From Spongospora subterranea (taxonomy: Eukaryota; Endomyxa; Phytomyxea; Plasmodiophorida; Plasmodiophoridae): a stretch of DNA of 14,953 nucleotides. The position numbers were made by a program, and so were the translations under genes. The DNA lies in the NCBI GenBank assembly GCA_900404475.1, contig OUQQ01000511.1, positions 1-14,953 of the forward strand, read 5' to 3'. Below the pieces are notes generated by a model. That model did no database searches. It worked only from the letters and a program-made list of their open reading frames with translations, and had not been told where the DNA came from. Positions 166 to 14,953 of the stretch are shown here, piece by piece; position 1 is the stretch's first letter, and each line of letters opens with the position of its first letter.

Positions 166-201
166 ATTATGTATTGATTTGATGCGCTGGGTGTTAACTA
201 A

Positions 202-648
202 CAACTATTTTCAATGTGCCAGAAAATCAAAGGAGCGGCAATGGGAGGCAACGCCTCTGGAGTATTCACTGATCTTGTCTTGATAGCATTAGAGACACAC
301 AATCTTCCTAAAGTATCAAAAGAACATGAAACAGTTTGATACAGAAGATATCGCGATGATATTCTTATCGTTGAAGAGTCTCTGAAAAGTGCTAACGCCA
401 TTACAGACCACCTGAATGGGGCCGACATGTTGACTTTTGGTGACGCTCGAACTATTCGATGACGTATTGATACCCCAGGTCTCAGCAAATTTGCCGTCAA
501 GTCAACTGCGAGGAATTTCAACAAAAAATCGACTCCATTCACAGAACGTCAACGAGTTGAACTCGAATTAACGACTAATGTGGACAGTTTTCTCGTGAAC
601 GGTTTGCACCGTGGACCACATCCCGATATGATTGCGATCCCCGCAAAG
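202..648 (+). pseudogene. Reverse-transcriptase palm fragment, interrupted
   Basis: One + frame runs from 202 to the TGA at 649 and is broken only by TGA at 337 and TGA at 460. The first segment contains GAAMGGNASGVFTDLVLIAL, which resembles RT motif B (G-x-x-M-G-x-x-x-S/A, then A/T-D-L and hydrophobics). About 20 codons later comes YRRYRDDILIV, which resembles motif C, the Y-x-D-D catalytic box, with Arg at the x position. The order and spacing of the two motifs fit an RT palm such as those of Penelope-like or other retroelements, but the clade cannot be set from this fragment. Finger and thumb regions are not visible and there is no intact start. The segment after 460 is not recognised. I read it as a dead insertion upstream of the G-alpha gene. 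A 345-nt open frame on the opposite strand (198-542) is probably its antisense shadow. Confidence 0.45.
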
Positions 649-769: not shown

Positions 770-2169
770 ATGGGCTGCGGCCTGAGTCGGATCCATGACG
801 AATCCACCTACACCAAATGCATAACCGTGCTAGTATTGGGTGAGTGCATTCTGGCGATAACGCGAAATGCTGTTATGAGTTTCGAGCAGGTTCAAAATCA
901 TCCGGGAAGACGACCATGATCCGGAGAACGGAAATGCTGTTTCGAAAGTATGATGAATCGGGACGATTGGCATTAATATCTACAATACGCTCCGTAATTT
1001 TTGAGGAACTACTGGCTGTCTGCGATATCGCATCCGACGCAGCCGCATTGACACCAAACCTGGTGAACGCAAAGCACGCCGCGTTCGTCGATAGTTTAGA
1101 AAGAGAGCCTGGATTAAATCAGGAAGGTCTGAATAATGTTGATCGATGAGCATAGTGTAAATTTAAAACGGTGTTTTGATTCCGAGATGTTTCAACTTGT
1201 GTAAGATAAAGTTAATGAATGCAATTTTTAGCGGCGACGATGGTAGATTCAATGTACCGTAGCGGTGCTTTACAGGCGTTTTACAATGCGGCAGAAGTAG
1301 AGCCAATATCTGGCGATTTGACATTGTAACTACAATGTCAATACAACAATATATATCCAAAGCTGATAAATGTTGGTGATAAAGTGTTAGGGACGCGGCC
1401 GTCAGAGCAAGCGAGGTCCTCTATGTTCCGACAGATAAAGATATATTGTTATGCCAATGGAGCACCCGTGGCATACATTTCAAAGACTGCCCCGTATCTT
1501 CCAAATCATGTATCCGATTTATTGACGTTGGCGGCAGTGAGCAAGAACAGAAAAAGTGGATTGAGGCAATTCATATCCCACACAATGAAATCGTCTTCGT
1601 ATTACCGCTCGATTCAATTTTACGATTTAGGTACGTAAACTGCAATGTGTTTGAGGAATAACTAACTCGGTTCTAGCGTAAATGGAAACAGCTGTTTCCT
1701 CGATGAGCTGACTTTGCTCAGGCGGCTTCTGTCGCTGAACGAGATAAAATCTTCGAAAATCGTGGTATTCCTCACGAAACGGGATAGATTAGAACAATTG
1801 GCGACGCCTGAGCGTCTGGTCGCCGCCAGGAATAAGCTTCCAGGTGGGGATGTTGTTCCATCCGTGTCTCGATTGCCAAAACAGTTTGCCTTTCTGCACA
1901 GTGGAGTTCGCCGACATGTCGAGCTCCAAAGACGCTATAGCTTTAATCGAAAAATCGATCGAAACAATATATAATGAATGTAACGTCGTATATAAGAGAT
2001 CATGTAAGGAAACGAAATATACATCAGTCGCGTGTGTTTACGTTACTGAGATGGCAATGTGTGCTGGGCTGCGCCATGTTCAGGTCTGTTTGATAGCGTT
2101 GGGTCGGAGGTGAAAACGACCGCAACCATCCAGCGTATCATTGACGAATATCTACTGAATAAACCATAA
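770..2169 (+). CDS. Divergent heterotrimeric G-protein alpha subunit
   Basis: Guanine-nucleotide-binding signalling switch expected at the inner face of the plasma membrane. Exons: 770-839, 890-1126, 1232-1325, 1391-1630, 1677-1843, 1902-2083, 2134-2169; together 1026 nt, 341 residues, close to the usual 350. Every junction is GT-AG and keeps phase. A TAA stands in frame directly before the ATG, which fixes the start. The N-terminus MGCGLS has the Gly2 myristoylation and Cys3 palmitoylation pattern. The P-loop is GSKSSGKT (residues 24-31). YVPTDKDILL matches the family Y-x-PT-x-x-D-I-L segment; it is followed by QWSTRGI (156-162) at switch I and DVGGSEQEQKKW (179-190) at switch II. G4 is TKRD (247-250) and G5 is TEMA (318-321). 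Oddities: the switch-I catalytic Arg is Gln156, the switch-II catalytic Gln is Ser183, the second P-loop Gly is Lys26, and both termini are short. Partners and receptor are unknown. The gene is convergent with the M16 gene. Confidence 0.93.
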
Positions 2170-2479: not shown

Positions 2480-5400
2480 TCAATGGTTAAAATAAGCGTC
2501 AGGTTCAGTTTGCACTAATGAGATTCCAAATTCCTTGAAACCAGTGCATATGTCGGAGACAAACGTAGTTCCAGTTACGATAACCAAACGGTTATGCGGA
2601 GCCTCGAACGACGGCATCACATACCTCGACAACACCGTTAGCAACTCCTCTTTTGTCACATGCTGAACCTGAATACGCGAAAACAGGTAAGCCAAACACG
2701 ACACAGCTGCAGAATAGTGTAGCGTTTCGAAAGTTTGGAACTGTGTTGAAACTGACAGCAGAAATTGTTTGTTAAAACCCGCAAAATATCGCGGAACTGC
2801 GAACAAACGTTTGATAAAGGAAAAGATTCAAGCAGTTGCGTGAAAAATATGAATCCCAATGGTTTCACCTTTTTGAGAAGACATTTTTGATAATCGCTGC
2901 CAAGACCGCGCAGAGAGTCATCCAAATGTTCACGGGCAGCAGAGAAGGCATTATCTCGAGATCTGGCAAGAAACTATCGATGCCCTTTCACTAAAAAGTC
3001 GAGAAAACAACTTACGACACGATTTCGAACGACAGCGAAGAGCGCGCAGCTTGTAGGGCAACGTCCGAGATGGCGCTTGTACCGCCGGACACAAGCTCGC
3101 GGACAACGTTGCGTGCCTCGCCATAAGCGGCGACGACATTTGTCGCTTTGAAAAGCGTGCACACCATTAATCCAGATTCGAAATCAGCAGATAAGCCATA
3201 GCTATAGCTGTACCCAGCACCGCGAATACGCTTCCACAGCGGGCCCTCGCAAGCGGTGATGTATTCCAACGCCAATCTGACTGCCGGAACGCATTCGGCG
3301 TCGAATGATGCTGGTAAAACGGCACCTGTTACCAAACAATTAGACACAATACTGGAAGAAAGAAATTAAGGCTCAAGCGAACGAATTGGTCAGCACAAAG
3401 AAACAGGATCAGAACTGGTTTGTTGAACATTGTAGAAATTGAGACGATAGACACAGATTCAAATGAAGAAATGAAAATACAAGTGACAGAACGATAGGAA
3501 CTAAACCTGTTTGATATAGGTACGAAGTCTCAAGGCCTGCAACGACAATGGCGACAGGAGCACGACCTTCGCCAGGGCTCTGGAAAAGACCTTAGCGACA
3601 TGCATTACGCAAATCTAGCGGTTTTATAAAACAACCTTGCAGGACAGAAGGTACCGATTCGAGAATGGGAATGGAAGAGCCATCTTAGTGATTGGCAACC
3701 CTGAAAACGCGGTGAGTTTTGCGAGCTAGCCACTCGCCCAAATGTATTGGTGACAGGAACAAAAAAAAACTATAAAAGGCATTCATAACGATGACAATAT
3801 TGCCGGTTATGTGACAGTACAAGAAGAGATGTTTGAATGACGCGAGAGGAGTATCCAATGCATTGGATAACGCAAAAAAGGAAAATGTATTGAACCTTTG
3901 ATTAACAAAAACCTACCTTCAAAAGCTGCGCGCCAGGGTTCAACAATTTTTTCATGGCGAGTGACATCCAAGGAAACATGGAACATGGCATTGGATGACA
4001 AATAATTTTGCAGCTTTACCAATTCCGCAACGACCGAGTCAGGAGCAGAATCAAGATCGGATAAAACCCGGGATAGGAAACGATCCTATCAGGGGCAAAA
4101 CATGTTTATGATTGACCATACATCACTAAAAATACTGCAAATGAGCAAAAAGAATAAAACGGCTAATTCTGAATTTTTGACAGGTATTCGGTGACGCAAC
4201 ATGGTGATCACTCGGGAAAACAGAAACCAGGGGGTCTGAAACCGTCTTTGTAAGGAGAGGAGACAAATAGAAAGAGGGAGTGAAACGTGACAAATTTGTA
4301 CTTGTTGAAACATCGATGTGGTAACGTGATTTGAGGTCATCTCGAAATTCTCGACATGAATGGCAGCGACTGCTATTCTGTTTCCTTTCCGCTTCAACGA
4401 CGCTATTGAACTGCATTACGTTAGAAAAAGCAGCAATACTGATAAGAATGAAACTCGTTAGACAGAATGACACCCCAAACTTAACCCCGCGATTGGTCTA
4501 CACGAAAAAATATCCCAAAACTGATATCCAAGTGAAACATGTTTGTAACTTCTCGTGCCTATGCAAACGTGTGCAGACAATACGAATGCGATCGGGGTTG
4601 AAAACGACTCCTGTCATAACTGAGAAACAAGGACGATCAACAGCAGCATCAAAAAAGACGCGAGGAATCATTACATGTCCGCATCCAGTTGACAGCAGTG
4701 GTGTAGGTGGTCTCTGGAAATTTTAGCCCAAGCTGAAACGACTGCGAGAAGGAGCCACACGAAAATGGGGCTGAAACAAGCTTAATTCCAGACTGACAAA
4801 AGAAACATATTTGTAGGTGTTGGAAAAAGCAAAAAATATGGGTATATTAAATGGCGAAGTTGAGGAATCCCTCTTGAAGGCGTAAAGCAAATTCCGACCC
4901 AAAAAAATATATGGAAATAACGTACAAGACGAGCTGCCGGTGTGCGCGACCCATGAAACGGCCTGTTGGTCAAGCATCGTAATCACATCGTGAAGCGCAA
5001 TAACATTGTTTCCCTACATTAGAGCAATTAGAAAACAAAGCATAAAGCGTTGTCAAGCTCCAGGCTGTACGGGAAAGAGACGAACGTCACTTTCAAAGAT
5101 GAGCTCAGCATAAAGTTCAAGTAAAAAGCGCTGCTCCAGTGGCAAAGTCTCCGTAGAACAGATCGTGGTCAGTTCAACAAATCGAGTCGGAATACTATCG
5201 CAGATGAGAGAGAACGGCAATGACGAAAGCTGTTTCGATAGGTGCGAAGTTTCGAATCCGACATTGCTGGCCGAAACAAGTGGAACAAGCTCAACCTACG
5301 CAAAGTTGAGTTACGTAGAGAAGAATGAATAAAAAAAAGCATTGATATGATTAAAGAAACGTTTGTACGAAAAATATACTTTTGAGATATCAGGGACAAT

Positions 5401-8400
5401 GAACGACTCGAGCAAGGAAACAGGGGATGGAACGGCGTTTGCTTGCTCTGCCAACGCCAGTTTAGCACCACAGGACGCCAGACCACCAGGCCCAAGATGA
5501 GAAATCTGCTCCTCTATTCTCTTACATTCGAACCGATCCATGTCAACCGAAAGACCTAATACAAAATTGGCCTTCAAGCATACGAAAATATGGGACATAT
5601 CAGAGAAACGCGCTAACGCCATAAAACTACAGGATTACACACAAACGCAATCACGGAATTTTTTCAAAGTGTGAATTTGTTGAACGGAAGAAAAAAGCGA
5701 CTTTGCAATGAACCGACAGAAAGGTGCAAGCTTCGTACCTGAAGATGGACGGCCAATAACCGTAACATGCGGAGCGTCAATAATGGAGTCGTTTAGAATT
5801 GAAATCCAAAAATTCGTTGTTGCAGCCTGCAGCTCCAGCAAAAGACTGTCCGCCTGCAACTCCGAGGAGATATCTGAAGCATCACCATAAAGGAATACCT
5901 GGTAATTGAGTTCAGCATCATGCAAAAATTTACGGAAGGGAAGGGAGAACAAAGCGGATTGTGAGGAAAGGAAAACGTGTTTTTTCAAAAAAAGCAGTTG
6001 ACCTCGATGGACTTTCCAGCAAGAAACTCGTGTGCTTGCTCCTGTAACACAGGTAAAAAAATGGAATGCATCCCACAAAGTCAGAACTCAACCTCCAGCG
6101 TGACATAAAATTCGCGGATGCTCTTGCCGACCAAACGCCGCATTCTCTGCAAAAATACCACAGCGTAAGATTTAACAAATTGAAAACGCCAAGATACAAA
6201 CCTCGATATCGAATGTTGTTGGGTCCCGTTGAATACTTTTCAGCACTTCGAACATGCGTGGAGCAACTTGGTCCACACTACACCAAACAATGGAATAAAA
6301 AAGAAGATACACTCACCAGTTGCTAAAAACTGTTTCTCTCAATTTTGACAATCTGAATTGTCTGGTGAGTAAAACGTACGTTTCGGTATTGGCGTCGGTA
6401 AACGAAACGTGCAGTAAGGTTGTTGAAAACTCGTTCAAACCGGCATCAATGTTGGCACAGAGTGGTTCGTCGCATTCAATCAAGGCCTTCTGAAGCGGCG
6501 CAAGGGCTGCATTATGTGATCAAAATTATGGACGAGCTCGTGATCACAACAACATGTTTGAAAAAAACAGTTGAAAAACAGCAAACCATGACATCATATC
6601 GAAAATATGTGTAAAAAATTCCAGCGCAACAAATGCAGAACCTCCACAAGAATGATGATGAAGTGACATCTCATTGGTTTCTATATTTACGTACGAGACT
6701 CTGATAGGTACCGCCATAACAGTGTGAGCGCCAACTTCTGCTTGAGATTACCCCATTTCGGTCCTGCGACGCAAGCAGGTACACAACTTAGCGAACACAA
6801 AACCACTACAGGACAGCACAACCGCTCAGTACCTGTCCACGCGACCGTAACTGTGCCGACAGATTCCTAATTTGAACCAATTCGACTCAAAATTCCATCG
6901 AACACTATGCAGAATGAAAACCACATGCCATTGTACAGAAATGCATGTTTATGTGTAAAAAAGAACACAAAAAATGGATAACGTCATGACCTCAACAATT
7001 CGCCATTTGTGCAGCAGTAACAGAAACGATAAAGTAAAGTGAGTTGAGCATTTCATCTCAAACTTACATCATCTGTTGGGAAGTAAACGACCTGTTCAGT
7101 TGTTTGAAGTGGAGGAACAGACTGCCGCCATGAGCGCTCAGGCGACGTGACAGCTCCAACTTAGAGGACAGTTAGAAAACAGAAGATGCGCCTCGACAAA
7201 ACGGGTCTTACATTTTCGGCAAACCTTATCTATAAATGGTGTTAGAACAGTAAATAACTCCTCACGGTTTACCATCCCAGTGATTATGAGACACCTGCAG
7301 AACGTGTTATTGCGCTGGATCCGGCAAACATATGTTTGAATGCGCAAAAAAAAATACGAAAAAACAAAACAAACGCATCAGCTTCAGCGAAAAAACAATA
7401 ATTATTTGCGTAAGCTATCAGAAGCAACACTGAGTCTTCACTGACAGATTTTCTGGGCGGTAATGCTGAGAATGATATTGACGAATGGTATCAGCAGTTA
7501 ATTCACGAATGTCATGCAAGAGACCTCCGGTTTCCGATGAATATCCTGCAAACACTGTTGAAGAAGATAAAACCGCAAATTACAGCCGGGAAACACATGA
7601 AAACTATGGAGTCTGGAATAAAACTGGGAGACACTAACGAACCAGAAATGTACATGATAAGAAAGTCACGCGTTACCATGCTTGGGATAGCACAACCGAT
7701 GCAAAGCTAAGGAGGTTCGTGAGGCGCACGTGTTTTCGCGCGCCTGCATTTCGCAATAGACAACCCCGGCGCTGAACTCAAAAGTTCATACACGAAAATA
7801 TGAAAGTAGAAGTAATTACTTTTGACCAGATTCTGTGATATGGTGAACTTCGGTGACGAACCCGGCGTCTGTGATCGTGGGGAACAAGATGTGATCCAAA
7901 TACACAGGTAGCAGCGCAAGGAACCCTTCGGATCCGGCCGTTGTCAAAGTATAGGCTGTGTGGTCCGTCGCCGTCCATGCATTTGTGCCTAAACATTGTT
8001 GATGTTTACAGAACATAATCATATTGACGATCACCTTGGGACATGTTCCGGTTGGCGAGTTCGTCCAAAATTCCCTTATACGGATAATCTTCAGACCTTT
8101 TCCATGATTGGGCTCAGTATTAGCGTCATGAGACAGCGTCACGAATCGTTTACCCGAGAAATATTAGGTGCTCGAGCGTATGCGGACATCTACGACGATT
8201 GTTTTAAATCAGCATCTTAACGAATGTTAGAAAAATTGCCAGAGAACAAGTCTTGAACACAATCTGTTCAAGATGCCACAGCAAATCGAGGGAAAAGACG
8301 CAAAAAAGTAATTGATGGTCACGAATTAGATATAAAAGACGCTGGCTGCTGAGAAGAAAACAAAACAAAACAGAAAAAACCATACCCATCGTCACGATTC

Positions 8401-9195: not shown

Positions 9196-10428
9196 TTAAT
9201 GGCGATGCAGACAGATGACGACAAATTCAGCATTTTGTACCGTTCTCGTGCCAATTTTTACAGGAAGAAACGTGACTGGTACTCACAATATAAACCATGA
9301 GCCGTTTTGACACAATGATAAATGATATTTTTGGGTGTTCACTATTCAGAGTCGGCGTGATCGAAAGTCACTCGACCGAAAATTTAATGTCGCCGATAGT
9401 ATCGTAGGCGACCGCATCGGCGCCGACTGCTATGGGCAACGACGCTGATGAACACAGCGTGTCATGATGTCATTGTTCGCTCTCATTTTCGAACAAAAGT
9501 TACCAACGAAAACCTGAGTTTTTTTCATTTTTCTCCGTTTTACTTTTGTCTGTCTGTTTTCACGTAGGCGTCAGCAGAATTGTTGGGAAATTTATTTTTA
9601 CGCCAGATGGTCAACAGATGTTATAGCCCTCAAACTGAGTCAATTTTTGTTATAGGTAATCAATCGTGTTTCATTTGCACTGGTATTCAGAATGTCGTGA
9701 GATGTTGTCCATCCCCTTTGGTGAAACCAGCGAATTTTCCTTTTTTCTAGAACGTCGTTCCCTTTCTTCCATTGATTGGTTGAAAGGCGTTTACAACACG
9801 GGGCGGACGTCGGTGCTCGTGACGAAGAGGTGGATAGGGCATGACTCAGTGCATCAAGTGAATGCGAGTACGACTCTCCCGAAATCGAGTCTGGAAAGAC
9901 TGAGTTTTTTCAGCGTGATAATTGGCGTTCTTCTCCTGAAATATGGGGCAGGCATTGCCGCCGCTGAAGACGATGGACGAATGGCGCTGATGAACGCTTC
10001 GATAAAGGACAGGTATTTATTTGCACTCCTTTGCAGTCGTTGATAGCCAGAGTTTACTGGCTGTTTTCGTTAATTTGCCCTGGCAATCACATAGTGTTCG
10101 ACAGAACTGTTGGAAAGTGGATCATTGACGAGACCGGTTATTGGCGACTGTTAAATCCCTCATAGCCTCAGCCTGAGTTAGGTTCTGTTATTGGATCGTG
10201 GTAGTCACATTGGGCAATGACATTAAGAACATTGTGTTTTCGAATTCCTGAAAATTGTCGATATCGGTGTTTCACACTCTGTGTTGATAGTGGCGAGGCT
10301 CTTGTATTTTTCTAGAACGTCGTTGCTTCCTCTTATATCTGTGTTTAACTTGGATTAGGGCTGATTTGGTTGAGGTGCTGTTGGAGCACGGGGCGGACAT
10401 CGCTGGACAGGACGAGAATGCTCAATAA
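9196..10428 (+). pseudogene. F-box/ankyrin gene relic, copy A
   Basis: Homologous along its length to copy B (11678-12715). It opens with a stretch containing RSRANFYRK (about 9241), which matches RSRAKFYRK in copy B; about 130 bp holding the F-box in copy B are missing here. A first ankyrin segment follows (about 9770-9867, HGADVGARDEE), then a 46-nt intron (9868-9913), an intact 99-nt ankyrin exon (9914-10012, LLLKYGAGIAAAEDDGR), a 346-nt intron and an end exon (10359-10428, LVEVLLEHGADIAGQDEN, then TAA). The first ankyrin segment has lost its acceptor, is out of frame at its start and carries a TGA. These lesions make a working product unlikely. In an intact relative, ankyrin repeats would bind a substrate and the F-box would link it to an SCF ubiquitin ligase. 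Confidence 0.7.
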
Positions 10429-11677: not shown

Positions 11678-12715
11678 ATGGCGATGAAGACACATGACGG
11701 TGGCTCAACATGTCGATATCGGACCCTAATACAGTAAGACGTCTGCCCAGCAACGTCCTTGTCGAAATCTTCAAGTTTCTTCATGTGTCGTGGATTGACT
11801 TCTCGTTTTTCGAGGAGTTTTCAATCGAATTCGGCATTGTGGTCCGCTCTCGTGCCAAATTTTACCGGAAAAACACTGGACTCCTCGACGCTATACAATA
11901 CCATGAGCCGTACGACACAATGATGAATAATATTTCTAGTTCTTTTTTCGCTTTGTTTCTGAATTACATATCAATGTTGGCAATAAATGATTTTCAATAA
12001 TTTTGATTTTTGAGAAGCAGGTTGTTACACTGGCACTGTCATTCAAAATGTTTGTTTTTCAAATTTTGAAATTTGTCAATATCGTGTTTTTTGTGTTGGT
12101 TGTCTCGATGCGCTTTCTTTATTCTCGAACATTGTTCTTTTTTCCGTATCTGTGTTCAACTGTAATCAGGGCTGATTGGGTCGAACTGCTTTTGAAGCCG
12201 GTGCGAATCCCGCCGCTCGTGACTACCGCAGTAGGACGGCGTTGATCTGTGCCGCAATCAATTGCGAATGCGAGTAAGACTTTCACGATATCGAATCTAT
12301 GAAGACTGAGATTGTTCAGTGTGAATATTGGTCTACTTTTGCTGCAGTACGGGGCAGATATCAATGCTGCCGATGACAGTGGGCGAACGGCGCTAGTCAA
12401 CGCTTCGGAGTGTGGCAGGTATGCCTTTGCTTTCGAGTTTCGTTTTTTTCTTCACATTTTGTGGTTGCTGCAAAATCTATACTGAAGGCCATTAGCCTGA
12501 GTTCTTTTATCTTTTTCGGTTGCCACTGACATTCACAACATCGTATTTCGATATCTCGTTTTTTGCCGATATCATTGGGGATATTCTCTTTTCTAGATTG
12601 TCATTCCTCTTCCGTATCTGAGTTTAACTGTGTTAGGACTAATTGGGTCGAAATGCTCTTGAAGCACGGGGCGGACATTGACGCTCGTGGCGAGAATACG
12701 TGTAATAACAATTGA
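11678..12715 (+). pseudogene. F-box/ankyrin gene relic, copy B (more complete)
   Basis: An ATG at 11710 opens a frame with RRLPSNVLVEIFKFL, which fits the start of an F-box (L-P-x-x-x-L-x-E-I-F-x-x-L), then RSRAKFYRK and YDTMMNN; the frame runs open to 12000. Three ankyrin exons follow: 12170-12273, 12320-12418 and 12637-12715. They are joined by a 46-nt intron (12274-12319) and a 218-nt intron (12419-12636), and every boundary is phase 2, so the exons are interchangeable modules. Exon 12320-12418 reads LLLQYGADINAADDSGRTAL and the last reads WVEMLLKHGADIDARGEN, ending at TGA 12713. Exon 12170-12273 is 104 nt, one short of a multiple of three; a frame break falls between WVELLLK and AGANPAARDYRSRTALI. 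The F-box exon's own splice donor is not clear. The one-base loss suggests decay, though a sequencing error would look the same. Confidence 0.7.
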
Positions 12716-13504: not shown

Positions 13505-14788
13505 TTAAAGAGCAGCGGTGATTTGCGTTGAACAATAGGGACATGACCCAAACACGGTTTGGAAAGATTGGCGCGAATTTGGAATCGCCTTCAGCCATTC
13601 AATCAGACATGAATTATGAAATGGCCTTCCACATCGAACATTATCGCAGATACGATCAGCCACGACCTGATCAAACATTTAGATAATGCAGGAAATAAAT
13701 AAGGGACATTACGCCGTCATGCTCCGGAGCGTAGCAAATACCGCATTCCAATAAAAACTCGGTGTCCTCTCCTTGGACCTTTTTGGCTGGAAGTTTCAAG
13801 TTGAGTATGGCCTCCAGATTCTCGCGAGGCAGTAAACGCTCATCCCAGTCTGACGATTTCAACATTAGCCGCTCCATGAGAGGCATGACAGCGCTTTCCG
13901 GGCCTATGAAACGGCATTCTGGAAAACGAAATGGCGCGGACGGATTGATGTTGATCAAAACTGAACAATGATCTTCCATTGCGACCCGGCGGGATTTTGA
14001 CGATCGTGTTGGATTTTCAGGTTCAATAACGTGGCAGAATTTATCGATGTCCTCGAGAACACACCAGAAATTGTCGAATTGCGATATCGCGGAAATACAT
14101 TGTTGAACGATATGATGTAATGTAGATTTTGTCGACCAGGATAACTGAAATTCGTCCGGCATATCGACTAGACACTCGGGTGCACTAACGGGGTAGTCGG
14201 GCTCCAACCGAACACTGAATACGTGATTTCGCCCTCGCTCATCGCTGTTGCAATATTCATAGTCTGGTTTTGAAGATTCGGTAATCGACTCACAGGATTC
14301 TAAGGCGTAATCTGGCCAGACTAGGGTCAAGCTCTTCAACATGATCCCACCCGATCGAACCAATTTCTTTGATAATACATTCGTAATATTTTTTGCTAGG
14401 ATATTTGTCCACTGAAATTGCCCTATTATCCGATATATTAGGACCGCATCCGACGATACGCTCCTAGATACGATGCGTTCAGGAACAACAGAACCGAAAC
14501 TGAGTGTGAAAGTGGTCAAACCATAATGTCTTGAATCTCAACGAGAAATTCTGCAAGATTGTCATGGTTACTATACTGGGACATTCGCTGCTGTATCAAA
14601 TCCGAAACAAGATCGGATGAAGTGGAGCAAGCGTTATGTACCAGGTTGATGAGCGACTGATCGCATTGAAACTCCAATGCATCCTTAGACGTATTACATC
14701 GAATGGGGTATTGGCGATTGAATATCTTCAATAAACCGATGAACCATGGCGAACCCGACTGTGGATCTTCTGGTAACAATATGCTCAT
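13505..14788 (-). CDS. FANCL: FANCL, RING E3 ubiquitin ligase of the Fanconi anaemia pathway
   Basis: FANCL monoubiquitinates FANCD2 and FANCI at DNA interstrand crosslinks, inside the nuclear core complex. ELF-like N-terminal part: ATG 14788 to about 14522 (LIQQRMSQYSNHDNLAEFLV matches the family QQRM helix). Central RWD-type region: 14519-13713 (HVFSVRLEPDYPVSAPECLV, VIEPENPTRSSKSRRVAM, INPSAPFRFPECRFIGPE). C-terminal RING: CGIC at the end of that exon, then after a 46-nt GT-AG intron (13712-13667) exon 13666-13505 with CDNVRCGRPFHNSC and CPYC. All eight zinc ligands (C4HC3) are present; stop TAA is at 13505-13507. Oddity: the ELF frame meets TGA at 14516-14518 and the RWD frame is shifted by one base. 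A plain frame repair gives about 411 residues. A 110-nt intron (14521-14412) would keep frame and give 375, but would remove a conserved helix (LIYRIIGQFQ). The start is uncertain because the upstream minisatellite is also open in frame. Confidence 0.93.
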
Positions 14789-14953
14789 GACATGTATGTG
14801 TAGCGTGTGTACTTGTTTAGTACACCGAGAGTGGTCAATTGGGAGGGTTGCGTCATGAGTCATGACGTGTATGTGTATCGTGTGTACTTGTGTAGTACAC
14901 AGACAGTGGTCAAGGATAAGGATTGGGAGGGTTGCGTCATGAGTCATGACATG
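14786..14953. repeat. Minisatellite at the FANCL 5' end, in frame with the gene
   Basis: Unit 1 is 14786-14860 (75 nt) and unit 2 is 14861-14944 (84 nt; 9 nt longer). A third unit begins at 14945 and leaves the window. Both full units keep a small hairpin GTGTACT/AGTACAC (14807-14825 and 14882-14900). At each unit's right end the palindrome GTCATGAGTCATGAC (14852-14866, 14936-14950) contains TGAGTCA, the AP-1/Gcn4-type bZIP site. Unit lengths are multiples of three, so on the - strand they encode repeated peptides (MTHDATLPI ... QVHTIHIHV) continuous with FANCL. Each unit carries an ATG in frame. Confidence 0.95.

What the first reader, a model, noticed from the sequence alone, without database searches (positions are those of the whole stretch)
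1391..1630. G-alpha with both GTP-hydrolysis residues replaced
In canonical G-alpha the switch-I Arg (R-x-x-T-T-G-I) and the switch-II Gln (D-V-G-G-Q) are needed for GTP hydrolysis, and RGS proteins act through the same transition state. Here the aligned residues are Gln156 in QWSTRGI and Ser183 in DVGGS. The Mg-binding Thr159, the DVGG and the P-loop Lys30/Thr31 remain. The P-loop also has Lys at the second Gly, G4 is TKRD and G5 is TEMA. Exons and phases are clean, so simple decay does not explain it. I infer a switch that is GTP-locked, hydrolyses very slowly, or binds nucleotide in an altered way.
Basis: partly seen in the sequence, partly recalled or inferred. Interest (0 to 1): 0.75.

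Follow-up and report, generated by a model that had tools for sequence, protein, structure and literature searches.

The report
Divergent G-alpha with a disabled switch
A potato-infecting protist carries an intact but very divergent gene for a signalling switch protein (G-alpha) in which the parts that normally turn the switch off, and some that let it flip, have been replaced, so it probably does not work as an ordinary on/off switch.

Summary
The window lies in Spongospora subterranea (Rhizaria): two of its Galpha genes match proteins recorded under that name. Exons 770-2113 encode a 339-residue Galpha. Switch-I Arg is Gln156 (CAA, 1455-1457) and switch-II Gln is Ser183 (AGT, 1536-1538). Of 121 public Galpha rows, 118 keep both residues, as do 7 of at least 9 Galpha genes of the genome. 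A second gene, C447, lacks both too (Thr, Arg), also reads TKxD for NKxD, and has a database entry.

Neutral decay is unlikely: simulations to similar divergence gave about 12 stops, none of 200 stop-free; the gene keeps near-invariant columns preferentially, an intron shared with two paralogues, and an MGCGLS start. But no database protein matches it, and sister-species dN/dS was impossible.

"GTP-locked" is only one option. The P-loop Lys sits where Arg (G42R) stops Galphai1 adopting its active shape (PMC3285607); Lys180, Arg205, Arg208 and Arg242 are lost too, and the N-terminus is short. A membrane-anchored, RGS-blind, non-switching Galpha is my favoured reading, by inference. Atypical Galpha are known (plant XLG; deviations reported in Dictyostelium, Naegleria): a new variant of a known kind.

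The parts
770..839 (+). exon 1: MGCGLS... N-terminus (MGxxxS lipidation-type motif) to beta1
   Evidence: frame, joined; donor 840 scores 7.1; intron 1 lies at the same position and phase as in paralogues C469 and C499
890..1126 (+). exon 2: P-loop GSKSSGKTT and first part of helical domain
   Evidence: acceptor 889 scores 7.8, donor 1127 scores 6.0
895..897 (+). Lys26 at the second P-loop Gly (Ras Gly12 / Galphai1 Gly42 position)
   Evidence: Gly in 120 of 121 public rows and 8 of 9 own genes
1232..1325 (+). exon 3: helical domain (boundaries provisional)
   Evidence: acceptor 1231 scores 2.6, donor 1326 scores 2.5
1391..1630 (+). exon 4: end of helical domain, switch I, switch II (the finding)
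   Evidence: Pfam G-alpha 42.5 bits on this frame alone; also found by the whole-genome scan; acceptor 1390 scores under 2, donor 1631 scores 6.8
1455..1457 (+). Gln156 in place of switch-I Arg
1467..1469 (+). Arg160 in place of Thr182 of Galphai1 (RGS contact, recalled)
1524..1535 (+). DVGG retained
1536..1538 (+). Ser183 in place of switch-II Gln
1677..1843 (+). exon 5: switch III remnant, TKRD guanine motif (Thr247 1774-1776)
1902..2113 (+). exon 6: beta6/alpha5 and stop (favoured C-terminus ...VYVTEMAMCAGLRHVQVCLIALGRR)
   Evidence: frame; aligned; donor 1844 scores 7.5, acceptor 1901 scores 3.6
2084..2169 (+). alternative last exon ending ...IQRIIDEYLLNKP, spliced from 2003 or 2033
   Evidence: acceptor 2083 scores 9.0, the best in the stretch scanned; frame read; not decided without RNA

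Best explanation
This is most likely a real, intact, fast-evolving Galpha paralogue of Spongospora subterranea that no longer runs the standard Galpha cycle. Shown from sequence: a Galpha-family protein with a kept P-loop Lys/Thr, Mg-binding Thr, DVGG, the K and D of the guanine motif, and an MGCGLS start, but without the catalytic Arg and Gln, without the P-loop Glu that contacts that Arg, with Lys at the second P-loop Gly, and without Arg205, Arg208 and Arg242 of the conformational switch. Inferred: it is attached to membranes by N-terminal lipids, can probably still hold guanine nucleotide, hydrolyses GTP hardly at all, is not a target of RGS proteins, and does not move between the usual inactive and active shapes. 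It would then act as a fixed-state (nucleotide-state-independent) subunit, a competitor or scaffold for partners of the canonical Galpha proteins, and not as a timed switch.
For: Catalytic and switch residues lost against 121 public rows and 7 own canonical genes. Nucleotide-holding residues kept. Family membership 102.4 bits, cut-off 48.8. No stops in 339 codons, while simulated neutral decay of C367 to 25% identity gives 11.7 stops on average and 0 of 200 runs without a stop; 49% match at 59 near-invariant columns against 9-21% in the four less conserved bins. Intron 1 shared with C469 and C499. MGxxxS/T start as in 64 of 121 public rows. G42R of Galphai1 blocks the active state, displaces Arg178 and Lys180, and would clash with switch III (PMC3285607, abstract and passages); here 178 and 180 are Gln and Ser and the acidic switch III is replaced. 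A second Galpha of the same genome, with a database record, also lost both catalytic residues.
Against: No biochemistry. The effect of Lys is argued from Arg at that site in a protein that still had its Arg and Gln; that mutant kept normal GTP hydrolysis. Loss of basic residues is not special to the switches: of 17 conserved basic columns 10 are lost, among them Arg178, Lys180, Arg205, Arg208 and Arg242, but Lys209 and Lys210 of switch II are kept and 5 lost columns lie elsewhere; paralogue C338, otherwise catalytically normal, also has Ser at 180. No transcript or protein of the window gene was found. The short N-terminus could reflect a missed exon. Gbeta/gamma partners were not shown (uninformative).
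Confidence: 0.47

Rival explanations
1. GTP-locked, constitutively active Galpha: it loads GTP spontaneously, cannot hydrolyse it and signals permanently until degraded.
For: Loss of Arg and Gln each gives GTPase-deficient Galpha (recalled; Q/L and G42V are stated in PMC3285607, passages). [quoted passage not shown] Self-activating Galpha exist in Naegleria and Trichomonas (PMC9283941, passages).
Against: Lys at the Gly42 position and loss of Arg208 and the switch III acids argue against a normal active shape.
Confidence: 0.27
2. Relic: a once functional divergent paralogue that is now silent or dying, too recently for stops to appear.
For: No database protein of the gene although C447 and C591 of the same genome have one. 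Longest branch of the tree, 10 changes per column. Weak splice sites at introns 2 and 3. A stretch that looks like a degenerate retroelement lies just upstream (no Pfam support).
Against: Open frame through 339 codons, preferential retention of near-invariant columns, lipidation-type motif and nucleotide-holding residues kept.
Confidence: 0.17
3. Slow but working GTPase with substituted chemistry: other residues position water and charge, giving a slow timer.
For: Nucleotide and Mg contacts kept.
Against: I see no candidate replacement for both residues except Lys26; several nearby basic residues are lost too.
Confidence: 0.09

Closest known systems
Canonical Galpha (e.g. own-genome paralogue C367, 45-53% identical to its six best public rows)
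   Same: Galpha profile, P-loop GxxxxGK(S/T)T, DVGG, KxD, interdomain Asp150
   Different: No Arg178, Gln204, Glu43, Gly42, Arg205, Arg208, Arg242, Asn269; short N-terminus
C447 Galpha of the same genome (UniRef A0A0H5QFJ3, P0121)
   Same: No catalytic Arg (Thr) and no Gln (Arg); TKxD; Glu43 lost; Ser47 to Thr; the window gene's best relative within the genome (27-30% identity)
   Different: Keeps Gly42, Arg180, Arg205, Arg208, Arg242 and switch III acids; its record starts without MGxxxS; C447's own best relative in the genome is C367
Plant extra-large G proteins (XLG)
   Same: Atypical Galpha, low or no GTP affinity, reported to work without nucleotide; review speaks of deviating catalytic motifs in plants, Dictyostelium and Naegleria (PMC8584482, passages)
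   Different: XLGs have an extra N-terminal region with zinc-finger-like and nuclear localisation motifs (same review); the window protein has 23 residues before its P-loop Gly
Galphai1(G42R) and fungal MagB(G42R) laboratory mutants
   Same: Basic residue at the second P-loop Gly; failure to adopt the active conformation, predicted here (PMC3285607, abstract and passages)
   Different: Those keep Arg178 and Gln204 and hydrolyse GTP; the window gene is natural and changed at many sites
Protist Galpha with altered P-loop or self-activation (Naegleria fowleri Galpha1, Galpha5, Galpha7)
   Same: Protist Galpha; in Galpha1 a P-loop deviation at the Gly42/Glu43 positions slows hydrolysis (PMC9283941, passages)
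   Different: No statement in the passages I saw that both Arg and Gln are missing

Membership tests
Heterotrimeric G-protein alpha subunit | Pfam PF00503 over its curated cut-off | tested here: met
   102.4 bits, cut-off 48.8, residues 10-309 of a 347-residue version
Heterotrimeric G-protein alpha subunit | helical domain inserted between P-loop and switch I | tested here: met
   about 120 residues between Thr32 and Gln156, aligned with 8 paralogues
Heterotrimeric G-protein alpha subunit | catalytic Arg and Gln | tested here: not met
   Gln156 and Ser183
Heterotrimeric G-protein alpha subunit | binds Gbeta/gamma and a receptor | not testable with these tools
   N-terminus short: 23 residues before the P-loop Gly against a median of 42 in 113 public rows, 4 of which have under 28
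Plant extra-large G protein (XLG) | extra N-terminal region before the Galpha domain | tested here: not met
   23 residues before the P-loop Gly in my model
Plant extra-large G protein (XLG) | low nucleotide affinity, nucleotide-independent function | not testable with these tools
   needs purified protein
PseudoGTPase | GTPase-family sequence without catalytic residues | tested here: met
PseudoGTPase | no measurable GTP turnover | not testable with these tools
   needs assay
GTP-locked constitutively active Galpha | adopts the active conformation with GTP | not testable with these tools
   sequence argues against it: Lys at Gly42, Arg208 lost

The most novel reading that the evidence does not exclude
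A Galpha with a rewired active site: the P-loop Lys at the Ras Gly12 position replaces the lost switch-I arginine finger by holding the nucleotide's phosphates from the P-loop, and Ser183 and the neutral residues at 178 and 180 make room for it, so that the protein holds nucleotide permanently in a shape of its own and signals from the membrane outside the receptor/RGS cycle. With C447 it would mark a plasmodiophorid class of non-cycling Galpha proteins, independent of plant XLGs.
Probability: 0.08. Interest if true: 0.75.

Novelty: new variant of a known kind. Interest (0 to 1): 0.42.

Why it matters
Laboratory and disease mutants of Galpha show what single losses at Arg178, Gln204 or Gly42 do (partly recalled; PMC3285607 for Gly42 and Gln204). 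A natural protein that has changed all three and kept an open frame, a membrane-anchor motif and its nucleotide contacts asks whether a Galpha can be useful without being a switch, outside the well-studied case of plant XLG. The genome also has 17 RGS-domain matches over the cut-off and 7 Galpha genes with the usual Arg and Gln, so the parts of a normal cycle are present beside it.

Tried and rejected
Tried: rRNA family search of the own genome for identification failed twice with a machine error; one exact 18S pattern gave no match. Identity came instead from C591 (295 of 309 modelled residues in two exact blocks of the S. subterranea record P0002; I attribute the rest to my splice model) and C447 (328 of 328 modelled residues inside P0121). 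G-gamma search: nothing, and uninformative because no control rang either. Ric8: one short match just over its cut-off (26.1 against 25.7). dN/dS: not done; no orthologue was found, and the paralogues are too divergent for it (my judgement). Structure prediction was not run: the spliced product is not a contiguous translation of the window.

Considered and rejected: (1) frameshift in switch II: no indel against the canonical motif, and AGT differs from CAA and CAG at all three bases. (2) A hidden alternative exon with the usual residues: a motif scan of six frames of 601-2400 for DVGGQ-type, R-x-x-T/S-x-G-I-type and NKxD-type strings found one NKSD on the minus strand only. (3) A duplicate locus: 770-2170 gave one DNA match in the assembly, itself. 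(4) Arf identity: Pfam Arf 20.2 bits, cut-off 22.3. Five other contigs matched by PF00503 (C62, C270, C359, C240, C280) read as Arf/Sar-like to me (motifs recalled) and were left out of the Galpha count. (5) WIN and C447 as proven sisters: support 97/93 in a tree of 47 rows, 78/65 in one of 34 rows without C499 and C469; holding WIN with C591 instead is not rejected (AU p 0.34); both are long branches, and the tool warns that such joins may be false. Left open.

Limits of the counts: one search reported 300 proteins among 7996 scored candidates; 120 were listed and used, plus P0121 (121, two of them S. subterranea records of C591 and C447). They are the best hits of a mostly canonical profile, so they under-represent divergent Galpha. 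The conservation bins leave out P0121 and P0002. The trees used 47 and 34 rows. My models of C55 and C469 stop before beta6, so those columns are blank for them. One search did not find the C447 record either, so that search finds only close relatives.

Full report
What the window is. The window is contig C518 of a 20.6 Mb, 679-contig assembly. Of 309 modelled residues of its C591 Galpha, 295 lie in two exact blocks of a Spongospora subterranea record (P0002), and all 328 modelled residues of its C447 Galpha lie inside another S. subterranea record (P0121, UniRef A0A0H5QFJ3). The species is a plasmodiophorid (Rhizaria, Endomyxa) that causes powdery scab of potato (PMC4471660, passages). Published assemblies are 28.08 and 31.51 Mb (PMC12883290, passages), so the one held may be incomplete.

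The gene. Exons 770-839, 890-1126, 1232-1325, 1391-1630, 1677-1843 and 1902-2113 give 339 residues without a stop. A 347-residue version that differs only in its last exon scores 102.4 bits against Pfam G-alpha (cut-off 48.8, residues 10-309) and matches 257 distinct Protein Data Bank sequences at E up to 0.001, best 3.3e-14. Intron 1 splits the first P-loop Gly codon at the position and phase found in paralogues C469 and C499. The start, MGCGLS, has the MGxxxS pattern of N-myristoylated Galpha with a neighbouring Cys (lipid attachment is recalled knowledge); 64 of 121 public rows have MGxxxS/T and 41 have MGC. Scored with matrices from 43 introns of the paralogues, the sites of introns 1, 4 and 5 are mostly good, while the intron-2 acceptor (2.6), the intron-3 donor (2.5) and the intron-3 acceptor (under 2) are weak; real sites ranged from 1.3 to 9.0 (donors) and 1.1 to 10.6 (acceptors). 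The last exon is ambiguous: reading on to 2113 aligns well to canonical C-termini (by eye), but the strongest acceptor in the stretch (9.0) is at 2083 and leads to a second open ending at 2169. Neither choice touches the catalytic codons.

The residues. In an alignment of 9 own and 121 public Galpha rows, with Galphai1 numbering (recalled): Arg178 is Gln156, Gln204 is Ser183, Gly42 is Lys26, Glu43 is Ser27, Lys180 is Ser158, Thr182 is Arg160, Arg205 is Glu184, Arg208 is Gln187, Asn269 of NKxD is Thr247. Kept are the first P-loop Gly, Gly45, Lys46, Thr48, a Thr at 47, Asp150, Mg-binding Thr181, Asp200-Val-Gly-Gly, Glu207, Lys209, Lys210, Lys270 and Asp272. Arg242 is Cys, and the acidic switch III (YED in C367) is SVN. 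Of 121 public rows 118 keep both Arg and Gln; P0099 has Cys for Arg, P0112 His for Gln, and only P0121 lacks both. TKxD is usual in other GTPases such as SRP GTPases and dynamins (recalled), so Thr247 does not by itself exclude guanine binding.

A second double-loss gene. C447 has Thr for Arg178, Arg for Gln204, Gly for Glu43, TKxD, and Thr at 47. It has a database record; that this record comes from a transcriptome is an inference from PMC4471660, whose abstract reports one for this species. It is the window gene's best relative in the genome, but the trees do not settle whether the two are sisters, so the double loss happened once or twice. In both genes Glu43 went with Arg178, which it contacts (PMC9283941, passage); in public rows the two were not always lost together (P0099 lacks Arg and keeps Glu; P0084 and P0108 lack Glu and keep Arg).

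Decay or constraint. Mutating the C367 coding sequence at random to 25% identity gave 11.7 stops on average, and 0 of 200 runs were free of stops; starting from C447 gave 11.5. The window gene matches the consensus at 49% of 59 near-invariant columns and at 21, 18, 18 and 9% in the four less conserved bins; relative to the mean consensus frequency of each bin this is about 0.50 against 0.24-0.37 (my arithmetic), whereas unselected decay would give equal proportions. So most of its divergence arose in a working gene. Against expression: two searches of a 5.8-billion-protein database found nothing among 6402 candidates or only C447 among 7996 scored. A fragment under 0.55 of the query length would have been missed. 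Recent silencing therefore remains possible.

How it may work. Loss of Arg178 and Gln204 should remove intrinsic hydrolysis and RGS acceleration (established Galpha biochemistry, recalled). Three further facts point elsewhere. First, in Galphai1 an Arg at Gly42 keeps the protein from the active conformation, displaces Arg178 and Lys180 and would clash with switch III (PMC3285607, abstract and passages); the window gene has Lys there, Gln and Ser at 178 and 180, and no acidic switch III. Second, Arg208 and Arg242 are lost. This must not be overread: of 17 columns that are basic in at least 80% of canonical rows, 10 are lost in the window gene, and Lys209 and Lys210 in switch II are kept, so the losses are not confined to the switches; C338 also has Ser at 180. 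Third, only 23 residues precede the P-loop Gly against a median of 42 in 113 public rows, 4 of which have under 28, which would shorten the helix that contacts Gbeta/gamma (recalled). I therefore favour a membrane-anchored, RGS-blind Galpha held in one state, acting as a competitor or scaffold. Shown: the anatomy. Inferred: lipidation, nucleotide state, partners and function.

Setting. The genome has at least 9 Galpha genes (the search gives lower bounds), 18 RGS-domain matches of which 17 are over the cut-off (matches, not genes) and a weak Ric8 match, so parts of the ordinary cycle exist beside this gene. Gbeta was not searched; the G-gamma search was uninformative.

Known or new. [quoted passage not shown] Term searches in the main text of two Plasmodiophora genome papers (PMC4471660, PMC4815078) found no occurrence of 'G protein', 'GPCR' or 'RGS', and one in the powdery scab resource review (PMC12883290) none of 'G protein'. 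Of the papers listed by searches (7; 1; 10 of 1,471, a loose query) none is, by title, a study of a plasmodiophorid Galpha; the library is open-access only. The protein is thus a new variant of a known kind. It lacks the XLG N-terminal region and should not be filed there.

Noticed in passing
L009 (G000:C447, about 2688-3727): A second Galpha gene of the same genome lacks both catalytic residues (Thr for Arg, Arg for Gln) with TKxD; one intron in the modelled part; it has a UniRef record (A0A0H5QFJ3).
   Followed up: partly
window 13671-14953, minus strand: FANCL gene: UBC-like domains 3 and 2 well over cut-off, domain 1 below its cut-off (18.0 against 23.8). A Fanconi-pathway E3 in a plasmodiophorid.
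   Followed up: no
window 193-462, plus strand: Frame with YRRYRDDILIV, which from memory resembles a reverse-transcriptase YxDD motif, interrupted by stops; Pfam gave no match to the one piece searched. Perhaps a degenerate retroelement just upstream of the gene.
   Followed up: partly
window 12303-12485, plus strand; similar-looking stretches near 9950, 10370 and 12645: Ankyrin repeat (Ank_4 24.4 bits, cut-off 22.7) with related-looking fragments along 9.9-12.7 kb by eye (Pfam gave none for 9660-10043), perhaps a broken or many-exon ankyrin gene.
   Followed up: partly
window 2480-6300, minus strand: Several open frames of about 100 residues with short gaps, looking like one multi-exon gene; from memory they recall an M16-type metallopeptidase, but the pieces given to Pfam gave no support.
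   Followed up: partly
window 14787-14953: Two similar copies of about 75 bases (one with a short insert) at the contig end, seen by eye; the contig may end in a tandem repeat.
   Followed up: no
L014 (G000:C469): Galpha with DVAGQ instead of DVGGQ (Ala at the Gly202 position), grouping with C55 at 100/99 support.
   Followed up: no
G000:C68:2697-5832: Three RGS-domain matches within about 3.1 kb, a possible cluster of RGS genes.
   Followed up: no
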